Positions 9,916 through 16,170 of a stretch of 34,396 bases of DNA are shown one piece after another. The position numbers and the translations under genes were made by a program. The stretch covers positions 1 through 34,396 of the forward strand of contig JAFPWD010000025.1 in the NCBI GenBank assembly GCA_017395105.1, in the 5' to 3' direction. Numbering within the stretch: position 1 is the stretch's first letter; the number at the start of each line of letters is the position of its first letter. The notes below the pieces were generated by a model. That model had not been told where the DNA came from. It did not search any database and worked only from the letters and a program-made list of their open reading frames with translations. The DNA comes from Clostridia bacterium. Lineage in GTDB: Bacteria; Bacillota; Clostridia; Christensenellales; CAG-138.

Positions 9916-11253
9916 ATGGGTCTTATTTCAGCAGGTCTTGGCGCGATCGGAGGCACTCTTGCCGATCAGTGGAAAGAGTTTTTCTATTGTGACGCTATGG
10001 ACAAAAACGTGCTTATGGTAAAGGGTCAGAAGCGCGTTTCCGGCCGTTCCTCCAATACCAAGGGCAACGACAACATCATCTCCAACGGCTCGGTCATCGC
10101 CGTTGCGGACGGTCAGTGCATGATGATCGTGGAGCAGGGCAAGATCGTTGAGGTCTGCGCGGAGCCCGGCGAATTCGTTTATGACACCTCCACCGAGCCC
10201 AGCATCTTCTATGGCAAGCTCGGCAAGGGCATTCTCGACCTGTTCAAGACCATCGGCAAGAGATGGACCTTCGGCGGCGATCCCGGCAAGGATCAGCGCG
10301 TTTACTACTTCAACCTCAAGGAGATCATGGAGAATAAGTTCGGCACCGCGAACCCGATCCCCTTCCGCGTTGTGGACAGCAAGCTCGCGCTCGATCTGGA
10401 TGTTTCGCTTCGCTGCTCCGGCGTTTATTCCTACAAGATTACCAACCCCCTTCTTTTCTATACCAACGTTTGCGCGAACGTGACCAATCGCTTTACCCGC
10501 AATGAGATCGACACCCAGCTCAAGACCGAGTTCATCAGCGCGCTTCAGCCCGCTTTCGGCAAGCTCTCCGATCTCGAGCTCCGTCCCAACCAGATAATTC
10601 AGCACAATACCGAGCTTGAAGCCGCTATGAACGAGGCGCTCTCCTCCAAATGGGGCGAGCTGCGCGGCATCGAGGTGGTATCCGTTGCGCTCGGCACCGT
10701 TACCCTCCCCGAGGAGGATCAGGAGCTCATCAAGCAGGCACAGCGCACCGCGATGCTCCGCGATCCCAACTACGCCGCAGCCACCATCGCCGCCGCTCAG
10801 GCCGATGCGATGAAGACCGCTGCCGGCAATCAGGGCGGCGCAATGGCAGGCTTCATGGGCATGGGTATGGCGATGAATGCCGGAAGCAATGCTGCGAACC
10901 TCTTTGCAATGGGCCAGCAGCAGCCCGCACAGCCCCAGCAGCCCGCTCCTGCTCAGCCCGCTCCCGCAGCGCCCGCACAGGGCGGCTGGACCTGCTCCTG
11001 CGGCACCACCGCAACGGGCAACTTCTGCCCCGACTGCGGCAGCAAGAAGCCCGAGGAGAAGCCCGGCTGGACTTGCTCCTGCGGCAACGTGAATCAGGGC
11101 AACTTCTGCCCGAACTGCGGCAGCAAGCGCCCCGCGGCGGCGCCGCTCTATCGCTGCGACAAATGCGGCTGGCAGCCCGAGGATCCCACCAATCCCCCGG
11201 CATTCTGCCCCGAGTGCGGCGACAGGTTCACCGACGACGATAAAGTTAAATAA
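9916..11253 (+). CDS. ydjI: SPFH/band-7 protein with C-terminal zinc ribbons (YdjI-like)
   Basis: A 445-residue protein; ATG 9916 follows AAAGGAGA. Residues 1-300 are an SPFH (stomatin/flotillin-type) domain of the virion core protein/YdjI class: FFYCDAMDKNVLMVKGQKR, GSVIAVADGQCMMIVEQGKIVEVCAEPGEFVYDTSTEPS and the later helix with PEEDQELIKQAQR. A Gln/Pro/Ala-rich linker (about 335-360) leads to three zinc-ribbon modules: CSCGTTATGNFCPDCG, CSCGNVNQGNFCPNCG and CDKCGWQPEDP...FCPECG. The next two genes are homologues of Bacillus subtilis ydjG and ydjH, so the trio matches the ydjGHI set that works with the phage-shock protein PspA at the membrane. No pspA is present here. The function in membrane stress is taken from that system. 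Confidence 0.85.
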   Translation: MGLISAGLGAIGGTLADQWKEFFYCDAMDKNVLMVKGQKRVSGRSSNTKGNDNIISNGSVIAVADGQCMMIVEQGKIVEVCAEPGEFVYDTSTEPSIFYGKLGKGILDLFKTIGKRWTFGGDPGKDQRVYYFNLKEIMENKFGTANPIPFRVVDSKLALDLDVSLRCSGVYSYKITNPLLFYTNVCANVTNRFTRNEIDTQLKTEFISALQPAFGKLSDLELRPNQIIQHNTELEAAMNEALSSKWGELRGIEVVSVALGTVTLPEEDQELIKQAQRTAMLRDPNYAAATIAAAQADAMKTAAGNQGGAMAGFMGMGMAMNAGSNAANLFAMGQQQPAQPQQPAPAQPAPAAPAQGGWTCSCGTTATGNFCPDCGSKKPEEKPGWTCSCGNVNQGNFCPNCGSKRPAAAPLYRCDKCGWQPEDPTNPPAFCPECGDRFTDDDKVK

Positions 11254-11433: not shown

Positions 11434-12522
11434 GTGGCAGGCTTACAGGAATACAAATGCCCATGCTGCGGCGGCGCGATAGCTTTTGACAGCTCGCTTC
11501 AAAAGATGAAGTGTCCGTATTGCGACACCGAGTTTGAAATGGAAACGCTGCAAAGCTACGATGAGCAGCTTAATAATGAAAAAGAGGACGACCTTACATG
11601 GGATACGAATGCCGGAACCTCGTGGATGGACGGCGAGACCGACGGCATGCGCGTTTACGTTTGCAAATCCTGCGGCGGCGAGATAGTGGGCGATGAAAAC
11701 ATGGCGGCGACCTCATGCCCGTTTTGCGACAACCCCGTCGTGGTGATGGGCAACTTCACGGGCAGCTTGAAGCCGGATCTCGTTATTCCGTTCAAGCTGG
11801 ATAAGGAGGCGGCGAAAGCGGCGCTGAACAAGCACGTTCAGGGCAAAAAGCTGGTTCCCAAGGTATTCAAGGATCAGAAGCATATCGATGAGATAAAGGG
11901 CATCTACGTTCCGTTCTGGCTTTTCGATGCCGAGGCGGATGCGGATATCCGCTATCGCGGAACCAAGGTTCGCTCATGGAGCGACAGCCGCTACCGCTAC
12001 ACCGAAACGAGCTATTATTCCATAAACCGTTCGGGCTCGCTCGCGTTCCGCGCCGTTCCGGTGGACGGCTCAACAAAAATGCCGGACGACCTTATGGAAT
12101 CCATAGAGCCCTACGATCTTTCGCAGGCGGTGGATTTCCAAACCGCATATCTTGCGGGCTATCTTGCGGATAAATACGACGTGGATGCAGAGCAAAGCGT
12201 TGAAAGAGCGAATGCGCGCGTTAAAACGAGCACCGAGCAGGTGTTTGCAAACACCGTGCATGGCTACGCTTCGGTTCTGCCCGAATCGAGCAGCGTTCGC
12301 CTCTACAACGGCAAGGCGAAGTATGCGCTCTATCCCGTTTGGCTTTTGAACACCAAATGGAATAACGAGACCTATACCTTTGCGATGAACGGGCAGACGG
12401 GCAAATTCGTTGGAGATCTTCCCGTGGATAAGAAGGAAAAGAGCAAGTGGTTTTGGATCTATGCGGCAATCGGCGCGGCTGTTGCATTCGGCGGCGCGAT
12501 GCTCGTGAATCTGCTGTTCTAA
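11434..12522 (+). CDS. ydjG: Zinc-ribbon membrane protein (YdjG-like)
   Basis: A 362-residue protein with GTG start at 11434 after a purine-rich AAAGAGGGAGAGG. Residues 6-35 hold a TFIIB-type zinc ribbon (CPCCGG then CPYCD) and residues about 75-105 a second one (CKSCGG then CPFCD). The middle part contains the basic and Tyr-rich segment FWLFDAEADADIRYRG and AKYALYPVWLLNTKWNN, which are usual in this family. The protein ends in one transmembrane helix (WIYAAIGAAVAFGGAMLVNLLF), so the ribbons face the cytoplasm. It lies between the SPFH gene and the TPM gene, as in the Bacillus ydjGHI group, and probably anchors or recruits the SPFH protein. Confidence 0.82.
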   Translation: MAGLQEYKCPCCGGAIAFDSSLQKMKCPYCDTEFEMETLQSYDEQLNNEKEDDLTWDTNAGTSWMDGETDGMRVYVCKSCGGEIVGDENMAATSCPFCDNPVVVMGNFTGSLKPDLVIPFKLDKEAAKAALNKHVQGKKLVPKVFKDQKHIDEIKGIYVPFWLFDAEADADIRYRGTKVRSWSDSRYRYTETSYYSINRSGSLAFRAVPVDGSTKMPDDLMESIEPYDLSQAVDFQTAYLAGYLADKYDVDAEQSVERANARVKTSTEQVFANTVHGYASVLPESSSVRLYNGKAKYALYPVWLLNTKWNNETYTFAMNGQTGKFVGDLPVDKKEKSKWFWIYAAIGAAVAFGGAMLVNLLF

Positions 12523-12536
12523 GGGAGGGCGAAGCG

Positions 12537-13802
12537 ATGAAAAGAAGAATTTTTGCGTTTATACTGCTTCTTGCGCTCCTCGTTTTGCCGAGTCTGACGG
12601 CGCTTGCCTCGGGCGGCGCGGATGCGTATATCATCGATGAGCGCGGCAAGCTCTCCTCGGGTGAGATCGAGCAGCTTACCGAGAAGTCAAGGCTGATCGA
12701 AGCCGAGCAGGGCTTCACGCCGATGTTCGCAATCGTTGAGGATGCGGGCGGCGACGTGACCGCCTACCTTGAAAGGCTCTATGCGGAGAACCACGGCGGC
12801 GAAAACGGCCTTATAATCGGCTACAGCAACGTTGAAAATAAATGGAGCGCCGCGGCCTTCGGGCTTGCGAAGGATTCCTTTACCGAAAACGATATCGATC
12901 GGCTTTGGGAAGCATATCAGAATACCGACACCTATATCGCGGGCGTGAACGCCTATCTGGATAATGCTTCAAGGCTCTACGCAGAGAGGGCGGGCGGCAA
13001 GGTTCCCGATCAGATCGCTAATGCGACCGAGGTGCCGACTGCGGTTCCCGCAACCGCGGCGCCGATCGTGACGGCCGAGCCTGCGGGAGAACCCGGTGCG
13101 CACGTGGTAGATCTTGCCGATCTGTTGAGCGATGGCGAGGAACGCTCGCTTCGCGAGAAGCTTGAAACGATCAGCGCAAAGCATAACTGCGACGTTGTGG
13201 TGGTAACGGTGAACAGCACGGGCAACAAAACCCCCATGGAGTTTGCCGATGACTATCAGGATTACAACGGCTATAAGCCCGATGGCATCCTGCTTCTTAT
13301 CAGCATGGCGGATAGGGATTGGTGGGTAACCACGAAGGGAAGCGGCATAGATGCGGTAAACAAGGATGCGCTGGAAAAGATCGAGGACGATATAGTTGAT
13401 GATCTTTCGGGCGGACGATATGCCAACGCATTCAATACCTTTGGCAATCTTTGCGATGATTTCCTTACGCTGGAAGAGAACGGAGAGCCGTATAAAAAGC
13501 CCAAGGAACCGCTTATCTCAACAACATTTGCGGCGATAGGCTCGGCGGTGGTCGGCCTTATCAGCGGCGGCGGAGTCGCGGGCAGCATGGCGGCGAAGCT
13601 CAAGAGCGTGCGCCATAAGACCAATGCTTCGGACTACGTTGAAAAGGGCAGCCTCCGCATGGTGGATCAGAGCGAGATATTCCTCTATACAAATGTGATC
13701 AAAACCGAGATTCCGCGCGATAACGATCGTTCAAGCGGCGGCGGAGGGGTACACATTTCGTCCTCCGGCTCATCGCATGGCGGCGGAGGCGGAAAATTCT
13801 AA
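12537..13802 (+). CDS. ydjH: TPM-domain membrane protein (YdjH-like)
   Basis: A 421-residue protein; ATG 12537 is seven bases after GGGAGGG. A signal peptide (residues 1-23, ending TALAS) leads to two TPM-like domains in tandem. The first (about 28-150) is diverged: YIIDERGKLSSGEIEQL, then GLIIGYS. The second (about 185-310) is standard: VVDLADLLSDGEERSLREKLETIS, DVVVVTV, DGILLLISMADRDWWV. A transmembrane segment follows near residue 325-345 (FAAIGSAVVGLISGGGVAGS), then a cytoplasmic tail ending in a Gly/Ser/His-rich stretch as in YgcG-type proteins. Most relatives have one TPM domain, so the duplication is unusual. The 3' end of this gene is copied at 14945-15181. Confidence 0.85.
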   Translation: MKRRIFAFILLLALLVLPSLTALASGGADAYIIDERGKLSSGEIEQLTEKSRLIEAEQGFTPMFAIVEDAGGDVTAYLERLYAENHGGENGLIIGYSNVENKWSAAAFGLAKDSFTENDIDRLWEAYQNTDTYIAGVNAYLDNASRLYAERAGGKVPDQIANATEVPTAVPATAAPIVTAEPAGEPGAHVVDLADLLSDGEERSLREKLETISAKHNCDVVVVTVNSTGNKTPMEFADDYQDYNGYKPDGILLLISMADRDWWVTTKGSGIDAVNKDALEKIEDDIVDDLSGGRYANAFNTFGNLCDDFLTLEENGEPYKKPKEPLISTTFAAIGSAVVGLISGGGVAGSMAAKLKSVRHKTNASDYVEKGSLRMVDQSEIFLYTNVIKTEIPRDNDRSSGGGGVHISSSGSSHGGGGGKF

Positions 13803-13858
13803 TATTGCAAAGCAGTACTTAAATGCAGCACTTTGGGAAATCCTGAGTGCTGCTTTTT
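13587..13858 (+). repeat. Direct repeat, copy 1: ydjH 3' end with terminator
   Basis: The last 71 codons of the ydjH-like gene and its terminator recur at 14963-15235. The first 51 residues of the copies differ at only four positions; the Gly/Ser tails are more diverged. Confidence 0.8.
13825..13858 (+). terminator. Terminator of the ydjIGH-like operon
   Basis: GCAGCACT (13825-13832) pairs perfectly with AGTGCTGC (13846-13853), followed by TTTTT. Confidence 0.85.
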
Positions 13859-13913
13859 AGCTGTATCTGCCGCCGCTCGGCGGAGCTGTAAAACCGAATT
13901 AGCCGATGCAAAT

Positions 13914-13950
13914 GAACCGCCCCCGGCAGAAGCTGTCGGGGGCGGGTTGG
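13914..13950 (-). terminator. Long GC-rich hairpin downstream of the minus-strand cassette
   Basis: AACCGCCCCCGGCAG pairs with CTGTCGGGGGCGGGTT across loop AAG (about 13914-13948), one of the strongest hairpins in the window. On the minus strand it follows the Cys-rich gene by about 15 bases, with only TTCATTT after it, so it is probably the cassette's terminator. Confidence 0.55.
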
Positions 13951-13963
13951 TTAATGGTTTGGC

Positions 13964-14110
13964 TTAGCGTTTTTTATGATACTTGCACTCTTTAACCTCA
14001 TCGGGATCTTCATAACACCCATAAAATGTGCAGTACCACTTGCAGCCCTTCCTCTCGGTGGGATCAATATGCACGCAAGTACTACATTTGCAATAGTAAT
14101 CTACCGCCAT
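13964..14110 (-). CDS. Cys-rich 48-residue protein, probable metal-binding
   Basis: A short gene on the minus strand from ATG at 14110 to TAA at 13964, with AGGAGG eight bases before the start. The 48 residues include seven Cys (positions 7, 9, 12, 23, 27, 32, 42) and two His (14, 45), arranged as CKCSTC near the N-terminus and CKWYC plus CYEDPDEVKEC later, and a basic end. This spacing suggests one or two zinc or iron sites, or a disulfide-rich fold. There is no signal peptide. It lies 24 bases after the 152-residue gene on the same strand and is probably cotranscribed from the XRE-controlled promoter at 14636-14664. I know no named family for it. Confidence 0.7.
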   Translation of the reverse strand: MAVDYYCKCSTCVHIDPTERKGCKWYCTFYGCYEDPDEVKECKYHKKR

Positions 14111-14134
14111 AGTCTCGTCCTCCTTTCTATGATA

Positions 14135-14593
14135 TTACTCTATCAGCGACATGAAGCAGTCGTGAAGAATCGTGTAGTAATTGTTCTCGTCCTCAAGCTT
14201 TTGCTTGTGACCGGTAGCCGAATTGATCAGCGATTTGAAGATCGCTCCGGTGCTGAAGCCGCTCGCCTGGTTCTCATTGCGGATGTTCTTGCTTGCCCCA
14301 AACTGGAATACGTCCAGGAATGCATAGGTACCCTGATACGACACTCTGATAATAAACTTGATATACTCGGGGTGCTGAGTGTTATAGAGTACCAGAACGT
14401 CCTCGCTCTGCTTGTTGAAAAGGGAACCGGTCTTGACTGTATCGGCGTTAAACGCAATGGGAATGCCATAGCTGTCGGCCTTGTCCTGAATGTAGCTTCT
14501 GATTACCTCAAGGGTAACGTTGCTTCCGTCTTGAAAGCGTACTCGGTCGATAAACCTGCGATCATCGGAAAGCCAATCTGCGCTAAGTGCCAT
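14135..14593 (-). CDS. Unknown protein of XRE-controlled cassette
   Basis: A 152-residue soluble protein. The start at 14593 (MALSADWLSDD) has GGAGG seven bases upstream; the longer frame to 14671 runs through the operators and is not used. It is alpha/beta in character: VRFQDGSNVTLEVIRSYI near the N-terminus, EDVLVLYNTQHPEYIKFIIRVSYQGTY in the middle with a beta-rich core, then SKNIRNENQASG and a helical end. No transmembrane segment or catalytic motif stands out. It is divergent from the XRE gene at 14719 and its promoter is covered by two palindromes, so it is almost certainly that repressor's target. The fold and role are unknown. Confidence 0.75.
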   Translation of the reverse strand: MALSADWLSDDRRFIDRVRFQDGSNVTLEVIRSYIQDKADSYGIPIAFNADTVKTGSLFNKQSEDVLVLYNTQHPEYIKFIIRVSYQGTYAFLDVFQFGASKNIRNENQASGFSTGAIFKSLINSATGHKQKLEDENNYYTILHDCFMSLIE

Positions 14594-14635
14594 AAAAATA
14601 CCTCCATGGATGATTGAGTTGATTGGATACATCAG

Positions 14636-14664
14636 ATTATACTCAATCTTTGAGTAAAAGTCAA
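14636..14664 (-). promoter_or_regulatory. Promoter of the minus-strand XRE-controlled cassette
   Basis: On the minus strand, -35 TTGACT (14664-14659) and -10 TATAAT (14641-14636), spacer 17 bp. One operator fills the spacer and touches the -10; the other abuts the -35. Confidence 0.82.
14640..14656. promoter_or_regulatory. XRE operator 1
   Basis: TACTCAATCTTTGAGTA, a perfect TACTCA-N5-TGAGTA palindrome within the promoter spacer. Confidence 0.75.
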
Positions 14665-14681
14665 TACTCAAATAATGAGTA
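14665..14681. promoter_or_regulatory. XRE operator 2
   Basis: TACTCAAATAATGAGTA, the same TACTCA-N5-TGAGTA palindrome, centred 25 bp from operator 1 and next to the -35 box. Confidence 0.75.
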
Positions 14682-14718
14682 TGCTACCATCGGCATATAC
14701 TTTATTTGAGGTGGTAAA

Positions 14719-14943
14719 ATGGATTATCGGGAAAGGCTCAGGCAGGTGCGCGAGGATCGCGATCTTACGCAGGCGGAGATAGGCAGGCTTTTGAACAAGT
14801 CCCAGCAGGGATACAATCATATCGAGGCGGGGCGTGCGGAGCTGAAAATAGATGATCTGAAAAAGCTTTGCCGCTTTTATGGGCTCTCGGCGGATTACCT
14901 TATCGGTCTGAGCGATGAAATGAAAACGGAAATGCAGAAATAA
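14719..14943 (+). CDS. XRE-family repressor of the adjacent cassette
   Basis: A 74-residue single-domain helix-turn-helix protein. ATG 14719 follows GAGGTGG. The HTH is residues about 14-35 (LTQAEIGRLLNKSQQGYNHIEAG), and the remainder completes the five-helix lambda-repressor-like fold (LKKLCRFYGLSADYLIGLSDE). It has no sensor or cleavage domain, so induction must come from a partner or from dilution. It is divergent from the 14135-14593 gene with a pair of palindromes between, a classic repressor layout. A possible own -10 is TATACT at 14696-14701 with a poor -35. The duplicated ydjH tail begins right after its stop. Confidence 0.85.
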   Translation: MDYRERLRQVREDRDLTQAEIGRLLNKSQQGYNHIEAGRAELKIDDLKKLCRFYGLSADYLIGLSDEMKTEMQK

Positions 14944-14944
14944 G

Positions 14945-15181
14945 CCGAGCGCGGCGGGAGGCATGGCAAGCAAGCTCAAGAGCGTTCGCCATAAGACGGG
15001 CGCTTCGGACTACGTTGAAAAGGGCAGCCTTCGCATGGTGGATCAGCGCGAAATATTCCTCTATACAAATGTGGTCAAGACCGAGATCCCGAGGGATAAT
15101 GACCGTTCAAGCGGCGGCTCGAGCGGCGGCTTCACCTCGTCCTCCGGCTCAAGCTGGAGCGGCTCGAGCGGAAAGTATTGA
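14945..15181 (+). pseudogene. Truncated copy of the ydjH-like gene 3' end
   Basis: This is a partial duplicate of the tail of the gene at 12537-13802. From codon MASKLKSVRHK (14963) the protein follows the parent closely through GSLRMVDQ, EIFLYTNV and KTEIPRDNDRSSGG, and a few codons of similarity (AAGG against VAGS) lie upstream of that ATG. The Gly/Ser tail has drifted (SGSSWSGSSGKY), yet no stop or frameshift has appeared. The signal peptide, TPM domains and membrane segment are missing. GGGAGG lies too close to the ATG for good initiation, although coupling to the XRE gene 20 bases upstream is possible. I treat it as a remnant; a translated 72-residue tail peptide cannot be excluded. Confidence 0.7.
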
Positions 15182-15235
15182 TGAATTGAAAATGAAACAA
15201 AAGGCAGCGCTTCGAAAAACCGGAGCGCTGCTTTT
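14963..15235 (+). repeat. Direct repeat, copy 2: ydjH 3' end with terminator
   Basis: The partner of 13587-13858. Even the terminators match in place and design (GCAGCGCT here, GCAGCACT there). The repeat offset is 1,376 bp; the intervening DNA holds the XRE cassette. Confidence 0.8.
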
Positions 15236-15241
15236 CAATTC
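15183..15241. terminator. Bidirectional terminator with outer inverted repeat
   Basis: GCAGCGCT (15204-15211) pairs with AGCGCTGC (15224-15231), followed by TTTT. An outer inverted repeat GAATTGAAAA (15183-15192) / TTTTCAATTC (15232-15241) encloses it and supplies a T-run on the other strand. Confidence 0.75.
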
Positions 15242-15358: not shown

Positions 15359-15574
15359 CTATTTATAATACCTTTTCGGATCGTCCGTTTGATCGAGCAG
15401 ATAATCTATGCTGACACAGTAAAAATCGGCAAGCTTTATCAAAACCGCCGTCGGAATATCGTTTTCGCCGGTCTCATACTTGGAGTACCCCGTTTGGCTC
15501 ATGCCGAGCAGCCTTGCGAGTTTGGTTTGGCTCAGATCGTGATCCTCACGCTGATCGCGGATATGCTTATACAT
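15359..15574 (-). CDS. XRE-family repressor of the 15736-16170 genes
   Basis: A 71-residue single-domain helix-turn-helix protein. I choose the start at 15574 (MYKHIRDQRED), which has GAGGAAG five bases before it; the frame extends to 15613 without a better site. The HTH is about residues 14-35 (LSQTKLARLLGMSQTGYSKYETG), followed by LIKLADFYCVSIDYLLDQTDDP. It is clearly related to the XRE at 14719 (shared RED-DL-Q, SQ-GY, L-KL--FY--S-DYL). It is divergent from the small ORF and lipoprotein at 15736-16170, with two 17-bp palindromes over the promoter between, so repression of those genes is the likely job. Confidence 0.82.
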   Translation of the reverse strand: MYKHIRDQREDHDLSQTKLARLLGMSQTGYSKYETGENDIPTAVLIKLADFYCVSIDYLLDQTDDPKRYYK

Positions 15575-15620
15575 CTTTACTTCCTCGCTTCCGGTTATAA
15601 TTATCTTTCCCAATATAACT

Positions 15621-15637
15621 TAACCTGAAACAGGGTA
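15621..15637. promoter_or_regulatory. XRE operator 3 (imperfect)
   Basis: TAACCTGAAACAGGGTA, one mismatch from TAACCT-N5-AGGTTA, abutting the -35 box. Confidence 0.65.
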
Positions 15638-15666
15638 TTGACTTTTAACCTGAAATAGGTTAGAAT
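15638..15666 (+). promoter_or_regulatory. Promoter of the lipoprotein cassette
   Basis: -35 TTGACT (15638-15643), 17-bp spacer, -10 TAGAAT (15661-15666). The operator pair occupies the same positions as in the cassette at 14636-14681. Confidence 0.8.
15646..15662. promoter_or_regulatory. XRE operator 4
   Basis: TAACCTGAAATAGGTTA, a perfect TAACCT-N5-AGGTTA palindrome in the spacer, centred 25 bp from operator 3. Confidence 0.75.
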
Positions 15667-15735
15667 TGGTTTGCAGGATAAGTGCTTGTGCCTCTTTCTG
15701 CTATGAATTACAGTTTAATGGGAGGTGATAAATTT

Positions 15736-15786
15736 TTGAATATGGTTAATCTGTTTGAAATTTTTGTTGTAATAACGCCACTATAA
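15736..15786 (+). CDS. Possible 16-residue hydrophobic peptide
   Basis: A very strong ribosome site GGGAGGTGAT (15720-15729) precedes TTG at 15736 by seven bases, opening a frame of 16 residues (MNMVNLFEIFVVITPL). An in-frame ATG at 15742 would give 14. The peptide is hydrophobic, and the AGGAGGTGAT-start layout recalls the short holin-like type I toxins of Bacillota, but it is shorter than those. It may instead be a leader peptide or a decayed toxin. It lies in the XRE-controlled leader, 18 bases before the lipoprotein ATG. Confidence 0.3.
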   Translation: MNMVNLFEIFVVITPL

Positions 15787-15804
15787 GTCTTGGAGGAAAA
15801 CAAA

Positions 15805-16170
15805 ATGAAAAATTTTAGAAAAGCAGTATGTATGTTCCTTGCTTTGGTAACAATCGGTCTTGTTGTTGTAAGCTGTTCATCGTCAAAAACCGATCCGATA
15901 ATCGGCGAGTGGGTATGGAAATTTGATGATAAAAATATTCTTACGCTGTTAGAAAGCGGAAAAGCTTATTTGAGCCGCGGAAGTAGTAATAGTAAATACG
16001 ACGGAGATGGAACTTGGGAGAAAGTATCGAACGGCAAATATGTAATTATTATTCATGATACCACATGGGGTAATCTAAAGTTTGATGTTGTTCTTAATGG
16101 CAACACTATAACGCTTACAAGGGATGATGGAAGTACAAACGGTTACAAACAAGAATTCACACGAAAATAG
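15805..16170 (+). CDS. Small lipoprotein with lipocalin-like domain, XRE-controlled
   Basis: A 121-residue protein from ATG 15805, eight bases after GGAGG. Residues 1-25 form a lipoprotein signal with lipobox VVSC. The mature part is a small beta-rich domain: IIGEWVWKFDD, YDGDGTWEKVSNGKYVIII, LKFDVVLNGNTITLTRDDG. This alternation of short strands with a GEW opening is seen in lipocalin-like and similar lipid-anchored domains of Bacillota, but I cannot name the family. It is under the promoter at 15638-15666 and so probably under XRE control. Base composition is lower in GC than in neighbouring genes, which may mean recent acquisition. A terminator follows at 16241-16276. Confidence 0.75.
   Translation: MKNFRKAVCMFLALVTIGLVVVSCSSSKTDPIIGEWVWKFDDKNILTLLESGKAYLSRGSSNSKYDGDGTWEKVSNGKYVIIIHDTTWGNLKFDVVLNGNTITLTRDDGSTNGYKQEFTRK

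What the first reader, a model, noticed from the sequence alone, without database searches (positions are those of the whole stretch)
13587..15235. XRE cassette set between two copies of the ydjH-like 3' end and terminator
The last 71 codons of the TPM gene plus its terminator recur 1,376 bp downstream with only 4 differences in the first 51 residues. Between them lies a self-contained module: a repressor, its paired operators, a 152-residue unknown protein and a 48-residue Cys-rich protein. This is what remains when a mobile or recombining module enters at the end of a gene, or when a duplicated operon end is overwritten. Recombination between the repeats would remove the whole module cleanly and leave ydjH intact. 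I see no integrase. It is the best candidate here for an undescribed system.
Basis: partly seen in the sequence, partly recalled or inferred. Interest (0 to 1): 0.75.

Follow-up and report, generated by a model that had tools for sequence, protein, structure and literature searches.

The report
Swappable gene slot beside fixed repressor
The duplicated gene end marks a small cassette in which a repressor gene stays the same while the gene it faces is replaced again and again, a layout found at dozens of sites in gut bacteria and, in the papers we could search, not described.

Summary
The 3' end of a TPM-domain gene recurs 1,376 bp downstream (87% over 165 nt), with a Cys-rich ORF, a 152-aa ORF and an XRE gene between. 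The wider picture is stronger. The gene it faces differs almost everywhere: 67 clusters among 92 called ORFs. In six compared locus pairs (five sites) and in window versus G002, homology resumes 4-18 bp outside the operator pattern while the cargo is unrelated or partly so. Flanking direct repeats are enriched (12 of 67 versus 2 of 75 same-genome controls). At one site a congener lacks the cassette and has one terminator copy across a continuous flank. Tail 2 is not a copy of the window's present gene end but of the other end type in the genus, the type G002 carries. I read this as a repressor-anchored slot whose cargo is exchanged by recombination and which can enter at gene ends. No integrase was found in 26 window ORFs scanned. 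Repression, recombination route and cargo function are inferred.

The parts
12537..13802 (+). YdjH-like TPM-domain protein (421 aa), last gene after an SPFH protein and a zinc-ribbon-like protein
   Evidence: PF04536 at 2.8e-33; SPFH/Band_7 at 9916-11250; no Pfam family for 11434-12519, zinc-ribbon by eye
13578..13804 (+). tail 1: present 3' end of the gene, SHGGGGGKF type
13825..13859 (+). terminator-like hairpin after tail 1
   Evidence: read by eye; repeat D5
13870..13945 (.). about 75 bp with a GC-rich hairpin at the 3' end of the cargo; also in G002, after tail 1 and again after tail 2
13964..14110 (-). cargo gene 2: 48-aa Cys-rich protein; 57% identical relative in G002
   Evidence: no family at E up to 1 in Pfam, NCBIfam or PHROGs
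14138..14593 (-). cargo gene 1: 152-aa protein of unknown family
   Evidence: no family; own genome plus one weak relative among 103 family genomes
14636..14664 (-). cargo promoter: -35 TTGACT (14664-14659), 17-nt spacer, -10 TATAAT (14641-14636)
   Evidence: sequence; same layout in 75 related loci (the TTGAC part is fixed by the search pattern)
14641..14655 (.). operator 1, ACTCAA-N3-TTGAGT, within the promoter spacer
14666..14680 (.). operator 2, ACTCAAATAATGAGT
   Evidence: second palindrome in 69 of 75 loci (its first half is in the search pattern)
14719..14943 (+). XRE (HTH_3) repressor, 74 aa; identical protein in G002
   Evidence: PF01381 1.8e-14
14633..15034 (+). block shared with G002 at 395/402 nt, against 996/1089 for a neighbouring gene
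14954..15181 (+). tail 2: displaced gene end of the SWSGSSGKY type; open here, a stop codon inside it in G002, only the last ~10 codons left in G008
15203..15236 (+). terminator-like hairpin after tail 2
   Evidence: read by eye
15359..15613 (-). XRE of the neighbouring second cassette
   Evidence: PF01381 9.4e-15; relatives beside other genes in L276 and L278
15622..15666 (.). paired operators AACCTGAAA(C/T)AGG and promoter TTGACT-N17-TAGAAT of the second cassette
15802..16170 (+). cargo of the second cassette: 122-aa protein, lipoprotein-like start by eye
   Evidence: no convincing family; GC 0.363 against 0.53 for the window

Best explanation
The feature is one example of a repressor-anchored, exchangeable gene cassette. 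The constant part is a small XRE gene plus two palindromic operators. Operator 1 lies in the 17-nt spacer of a near-consensus sigma-70 promoter that reads the other way. The variable part is the gene or genes that promoter drives. The XRE probably closes the strong promoter, so a newly arrived gene is silent at once and is released only when the repressor is relieved. Cargo is exchanged by recombination: one breakpoint lies at the cargo's -10/operator 1, the other beyond the cargo's 3' end, so XRE and site persist while the cargo changes. Whole cassettes also come and go, often beside a gene's terminator, and can leave a second copy of that gene end. In the window the duplicated end reaches back into the gene (tail 2). 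Tail 1 now has the other end type, either because the incoming DNA supplied it or because the upstream gene later took another allele; its mosaic match to G002 favours the second. Shown by sequence: constant XRE and operator, variable cargo, same site with different cargo, patchy presence, one clean empty site, repeat enrichment, mosaic tail in G002. Inferred: repression, RecA-type recombination of incoming DNA as the route, any benefit of the cargo.
For: Related XRE right beside it in 75 of 80; four loci end too soon, L153 has none. The cargo -10 box, not part of the pattern, is exactly TATAAT in 53 of 75 and at least 5/6 in 74 of 75. First cargo ORFs form 67 clusters among 92 called in 96 sites. 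Same left flank and XRE, different cargo, at three sites: L127/L192, the CNNM site (L132, L135, L139) and L147/L202. L150/L163 and L177/L193 share the XRE and only more distant right-hand DNA (0.5-3.5 kb off). Homology resumes at -4 to -18 from the operator pattern in all six pairs; window versus G002 starts at 14633, 10 bp outside it. The CNNM site holds three unrelated cargo sets in seven places. Repeats at score 15 or more: 12 of 67, against 0 of 128 mismatched pairs and 2 of 75 same-genome controls (p 0.003); by blastn 14 of 80 loci against 41 of 730 other positions. Empty site: G475 matches the joined L130 flanks as one 949-bp hit, with one terminator copy identical to L130's right-hand copy. 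G002 tail 2 is a mosaic: first part 78/81 to the window, 66/81 to its own tail 1; second part 141/144 to its own tail 1, 128/147 to the window.
Against: No transfer, excision or repression was observed. 55 of 67 cassettes show no repeat at the chosen score, and of 14 family loci tested only the window's and G002's do, so end duplication is not a required step. Of the 12, one match (L201) lies inside the XRE gene and L158's forms no stable hairpin. At the ydjH site no clean empty site exists: the downstream gene differs in most congeners and G008 is a relic. Both end types of the gene occur across the genus, so which tail is older is not settled. Cargo clusters are inflated by ORF calling: L124/L167/L197 and L189/L190 share cargo DNA though counted apart. 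At the CNNM site only 7 of 20 places show the operator, and the G011 empty site rests on short right-hand matches (35-116 bp) near a contig end. There the XRE may be vertically kept, which is cargo turnover rather than movement of the cassette. Window and G002 share one of two cargo genes at 57%, so their cargo is only partly different. L130's two terminator copies differ, so a simple recent target duplication is not proven.
Confidence: 0.64

Rival explanations
1. Degenerate remnant of an integrase-type element (prophage, ICE/IME or CIME) whose attachment site was the ydjH 3' end, as e14 in icd: tail 1 supplied by the element, tail 2 the displaced host end.
For: Same anatomy as e14/icd, where a 165-bp copy with 12 nt exchanges lies beyond the element (PMC11148124, passages). 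An XRE 77% identical, with the same operator and a divergent Cys-rich ORF, lies on a viral contig, L119 (terminase- and capsid-like ORFs there by eye). CIMEs are integrase-less relics that keep both att ends (PMC5704250, passages).
Against: No recombinase in the cassette or among 26 window ORFs scanned. Among 116 flanking ORFs from 75 related loci, no integrase is in the 25 of 127 families shown. No viral contig was confirmed to encode the tail. The SHGGGGGKF-type end also occurs in G003 and G007, where no operator was found, so it need not have come with a cassette.
Confidence: 0.17
2. Tandem duplication of ydjH whose second copy decayed; the XRE module replaced the 5' part of the second copy.
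For: Tail 2 is an open gene end here, and G002 has a second full ydjH on another contig.
Against: No genus genome examined has two ydjH genes in tandem. No 5' ydjH sequence was found between the tails. The G002 tail 2 is a mosaic joined to the XRE block. Repeats, mostly hairpins, flank other cassettes with no ydjH.
Confidence: 0.07
3. Ordinary autoregulated XRE genes with ordinary neighbours; cargo differences are normal gene turnover, and the repeats are similar terminators that arose by chance or local slippage.
For: XRE-divergent gene pairs are common (general knowledge); 55 of 67 loci show no repeat at the chosen score.
Against: The same operator, spacing and -10 box recur with unrelated cargo. 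Breakpoints coincide near the operator in six pairs. Repeats exceed same-genome controls. An empty site was found.
Confidence: 0.12

Closest known systems
Prophage e14 in E. coli icd (PMC11148124, passages seen)
   Same: partial copy of the gene's 3' end beyond an inserted stretch, the upstream gene intact with a different end; copy length 165 bp
   Different: about 1.1 kb, no integrase found; at related loci the repeats are mostly plain hairpins; whether the insert supplied the new end is unsettled
CIMEs (PMC5704250, passages seen)
   Same: no integration genes, flanked by repeats at a gene end; a second cassette lies next door
   Different: constant XRE/operator with cargo exchanged up to the operator; no ICE or IME partner seen
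Displaced C-termini of Rhs/CdiA polymorphic toxins (recalled, no call)
   Same: an old 3' end kept as an orphan downstream
   Different: the gene end here is a short Gly/Ser tail, not a toxin domain; cargo is unrelated and divergent
Autoregulated XRE/Cro-CI type switches and type II toxin-antitoxin XREs (general knowledge)
   Same: small HTH_3 regulator with paired palindromic operators at its own promoter
   Different: one regulator type faces dozens of unrelated genes; cargo is divergent, not co-transcribed; few PADLOC hits
RstR family repressors (NF041951)
   Same: partial profile match (42 bits)
   Different: below the 80-bit cut-off

Membership tests
Integrase-borne element at a gene 3' end (e14-like, ICE/IME, CIME) | direct copies of the target gene end on both sides | tested here: met
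Integrase-borne element at a gene 3' end (e14-like, ICE/IME, CIME) | recombinase gene in the element (absent by definition in a CIME) | tested here: not met
   26 window ORFs scanned with Pfam, none a recombinase; not every window ORF was scanned
Integrase-borne element at a gene 3' end (e14-like, ICE/IME, CIME) | phage or mobile element carrying the tail as attP | tested here: inconclusive
   0 of 58 pattern matches confirmed in viral contigs; no ICE collection was searched
Type II toxin-antitoxin system | XRE co-transcribed with a conserved toxin partner | tested here: not met
   divergent first cargo in 67 clusters of 92 ORFs
Anti-phage defence system | cargo matches known defence families | tested here: not met
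   72 of 92 cargo ORFs scanned: 13 PADLOC families with hits, each in one member, one a type II methyltransferase
Decayed tandem ydjH | tandem complete second gene in relatives | tested here: not met
   none in the 10 of 11 genus genomes with a ydjH match, the window's own included
Integron gene cassette | attC site and IntI | not tested
   no attC search was made
HTH_3 / XRE regulators | HTH_3 domain above Pfam cut-off | tested here: met
   53.9 bits, cut-off 23

The most novel reading that the evidence does not exclude
A widespread class of recombinase-free exchangeable gene slots in gut Clostridia: one XRE and its operator form a landing pad into which foreign, mostly membrane-type, genes are swapped under a strong but repressed promoter, so any arriving gene is silent from the start. 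Several operator types exist (ACTCAA-N3-TTGAGT and AACCTG-N3-CAGGTT, both in this window). Shared repressor and terminator sequence supplies the homology for exchange between species.
Probability: 0.45. Interest if true: 0.78.

Novelty: new variant of a known kind. Interest (0 to 1): 0.65.

Why it matters
Small foreign genes often appear in genomes with no mobile element around them. A slot with a fixed repressor, a strong promoter it can close, and a cargo replaced at a near-constant breakpoint would explain how single genes can spread and be tolerated without a recombinase. It also gives a DNA signature that finds such genes, many of unknown function, directly in gut genomes.

Tried and rejected
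Tandem ydjH decay: not seen in relatives. The ~75-bp hairpin stretch as a dispersed repeat: in four genomes it occurs only beside these tails, plus one 33-nt match in G002. Prophage origin via a tail-bearing phage: none confirmed. Defence-system reading: PADLOC nearly empty. Relatives of the 152-aa protein: a weak match in G070, in a longer ORF; none confirmed in viral contigs. Operator of the second cassette in viral contigs: two hits, no XRE ORF seen beside them. Literature: seven searches were answered; none of the titles and abstract starts listed in them describes such cassettes. Of the papers, I saw passages of two (PMC11148124, PMC5704250) and only listings of the rest. Most subscription papers are not held.

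Limits of counts: cargo ORFs were called by a simple rule, and at least seven sites are held twice (as window, genome contigs or G-handle loci). Of 92 ORFs, I dropped 20 (12 duplicates or near-duplicates, the window's own among them, and 8 doubtful) before the Pfam and PADLOC scans. XRE pairs at 90% identity or more shared a cargo family in 1 of 29, but three pairs (L124/L167, L124/L197, L189/L190) share cargo DNA, so about 4 of 29 is fairer. Right-hand neighbour convergent with the XRE in 50 of 65 rests on longest-ORF calls and may be biased by antisense ORFs. Repeat searches covered 67 of 75 loci with enough flank. Pfam summaries list only 25 of 49 and 25 of 127 families.
Full report
What is there. 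The window is one whole contig (G000:C27) of an uncultured bacterium. The TPM-domain gene at 12537-13802 (PF04536) follows an SPFH gene and a zinc-ribbon-like gene (by eye). Its 3' end recurs at 14954-15181. Between lie, in order, a ~75-bp hairpin stretch, the Cys-rich ORF, the 152-aa ORF (both minus), the operators and the XRE gene (plus), whose stop codon is 10 bp before the repeat.

Relatives. Ten of 11 genus genomes, the own one included, have the gene. G002 (996/1089 nt in the neighbouring gene) has tail, cassette, tail, but with a 232-aa membrane-like protein instead of the 152-aa one, a 57% identical Cys-rich protein and an identical XRE protein. G008 (1057/1089) has tail 1 of the window's type, then 440 bp without an XRE, then only the last ~10 codons of tail 2 before the same pepT-like gene. 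Seven others show one tail. In 103 family genomes the 152-aa protein occurs only here, plus one weak match.

The two end types. The window's gene ends SHGGGGGKF; tail 2 ends SWSGSSGKY. Both types are spread over the genus: the first in G000, G008, G003 and (one change) G007; the second in G002 twice and G006, and with one change in G001 and G009; G004 has neither and G010 was not read in frame. So tail 2 is not a plain copy of the present gene end. Two histories fit. Either incoming DNA supplied the new end and pushed the old one aside, as in e14/icd, or an ancestor had the second type on both sides, as G002 does now, and the upstream gene later took another allele. The second is favoured by the gene itself: against G002 its 5' part differs at 4-12 of 75 nt per bin, its middle at 29-38.

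In G002, tail 2 is a mosaic: its first part follows the XRE block of the window (78/81; own tail 1 66/81), its second part its own tail 1 (141/144; window 128/147). A crossover or conversion inside the tail is the simplest account. Tail 2 is not maintained as a gene: it has a stop codon in G002.

The cassette family. The promoter/operator region was turned into a pattern with 21 fixed bases. It hit one viral contig and 115 stretches in genome contigs, where the scan stopped at its limit; 80 loci are held. Seventy-five carry a related XRE directly beside it. The -10 box of the opposite gene, 17 nt from the -35, was not searched for and is exact in 53 of 75. The gene it drives differs nearly everywhere: zinc-ribbon, TM2, lipoprotein, BspA-repeat, MACPF and an EcoRI-type methylase are among the 25 of 49 Pfam families shown. 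By a crude hydropathy rule 55 of 72 have a membrane segment. The operator is rare and patchy: 4 of 396 genomes drawn from the order, 13 of 103 in the family, 2 of 11 in the genus, at up to 2 mismatches.

Exchange. Six compared pairs of loci from five sites share the XRE but not the cargo; homology begins 4-18 bp outside the operator pattern in each. At three of the sites the left flank is shared too; at the other two only more distant right-hand DNA is. Window and G002 behave the same, though they share one of two cargo genes at 57%. In genus g2 the site beside a CNNM-like gene (name recalled) holds three unrelated cargo sets in seven of 20 places; 13 places show no operator in the DNA held, which is short at several. 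G011 seems to lack cargo and XRE, on short right-hand matches and with its contig ending 311 bp on.

Entry at gene ends. Direct repeats flank 12 of 67 cassettes at the chosen score, against 0 of 128 mismatched pairings and 2 of 75 same-genome controls, one of which (L183) is itself a flanking block. By blastn it is 14 of 80 loci against 41 of 730 other positions. By eye and by folding, about nine of the 12 are hairpins, G002's is the gene tail, L158 is no hairpin and L201's match lies inside the XRE gene. For L130, a congener (G475) has both flanks in one match at 90% identity with a single terminator, identical to L130's right-hand copy; a second (G481) also has a single copy but lacks the left-hand neighbour. 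Among 116 flanking ORFs the families shown are mostly housekeeping or transport, with no integrase.

How it probably works. Inferred: the XRE dimer binds both palindromes, closes the strong cargo promoter and controls its own. Incoming DNA recombines in the XRE/operator on one side and a terminator or gene end on the other. Shared XRE sequence would give both homology and immediate silencing. What relieves repression, and what the cargo does, is open.

Second cassette. 15359-16170 has the same design with another operator (AACCTG-N3-CAGGTT class), an XRE of another subtype and an AT-rich cargo gene; XREs of that subtype face other genes in G021 and G032.

Verdict. The interest lies less in the scar than in the class of loci it leads to. 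Confidence in the best explanation was lowered from 0.68 to 0.64 after and after two of the six pairs proved to share only distant DNA.

Noticed in passing
window 15359-16170: A second XRE-operator-divergent-cargo module of the same design but another operator sequence lies immediately downstream; absent from G008, where pepT follows.
   Followed up: partly
window 12897-13496: The central part of the TPM gene differs from G002 at 29-38 of 75 nt per bin, the 5' part at 4-12: the gene looks mosaic, as if its TPM part had been exchanged.
   Followed up: no
L119:1-1200: A viral contig carries a 77% identical XRE, the same operator and a divergent Cys-rich ORF, near ORFs that look by eye like a toxin-antitoxin pair, terminase and capsid: a possible carrier.
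   Followed up: partly
L031:11680-12150: In G008 a 79-codon ORF with membrane-like stretches runs in frame into the last codons of the displaced tail.
   Followed up: no
L170:122-1176: Two successive blocks are repeated on both sides of the cassette in the same order, as a single-crossover integration would leave.
   Followed up: no
L139, L246: Cargo of one cassette starts like an EcoRI-type adenine methylase and is followed by a DUF262-like ORF (names partly recalled), a possible defence pair.
   Followed up: no
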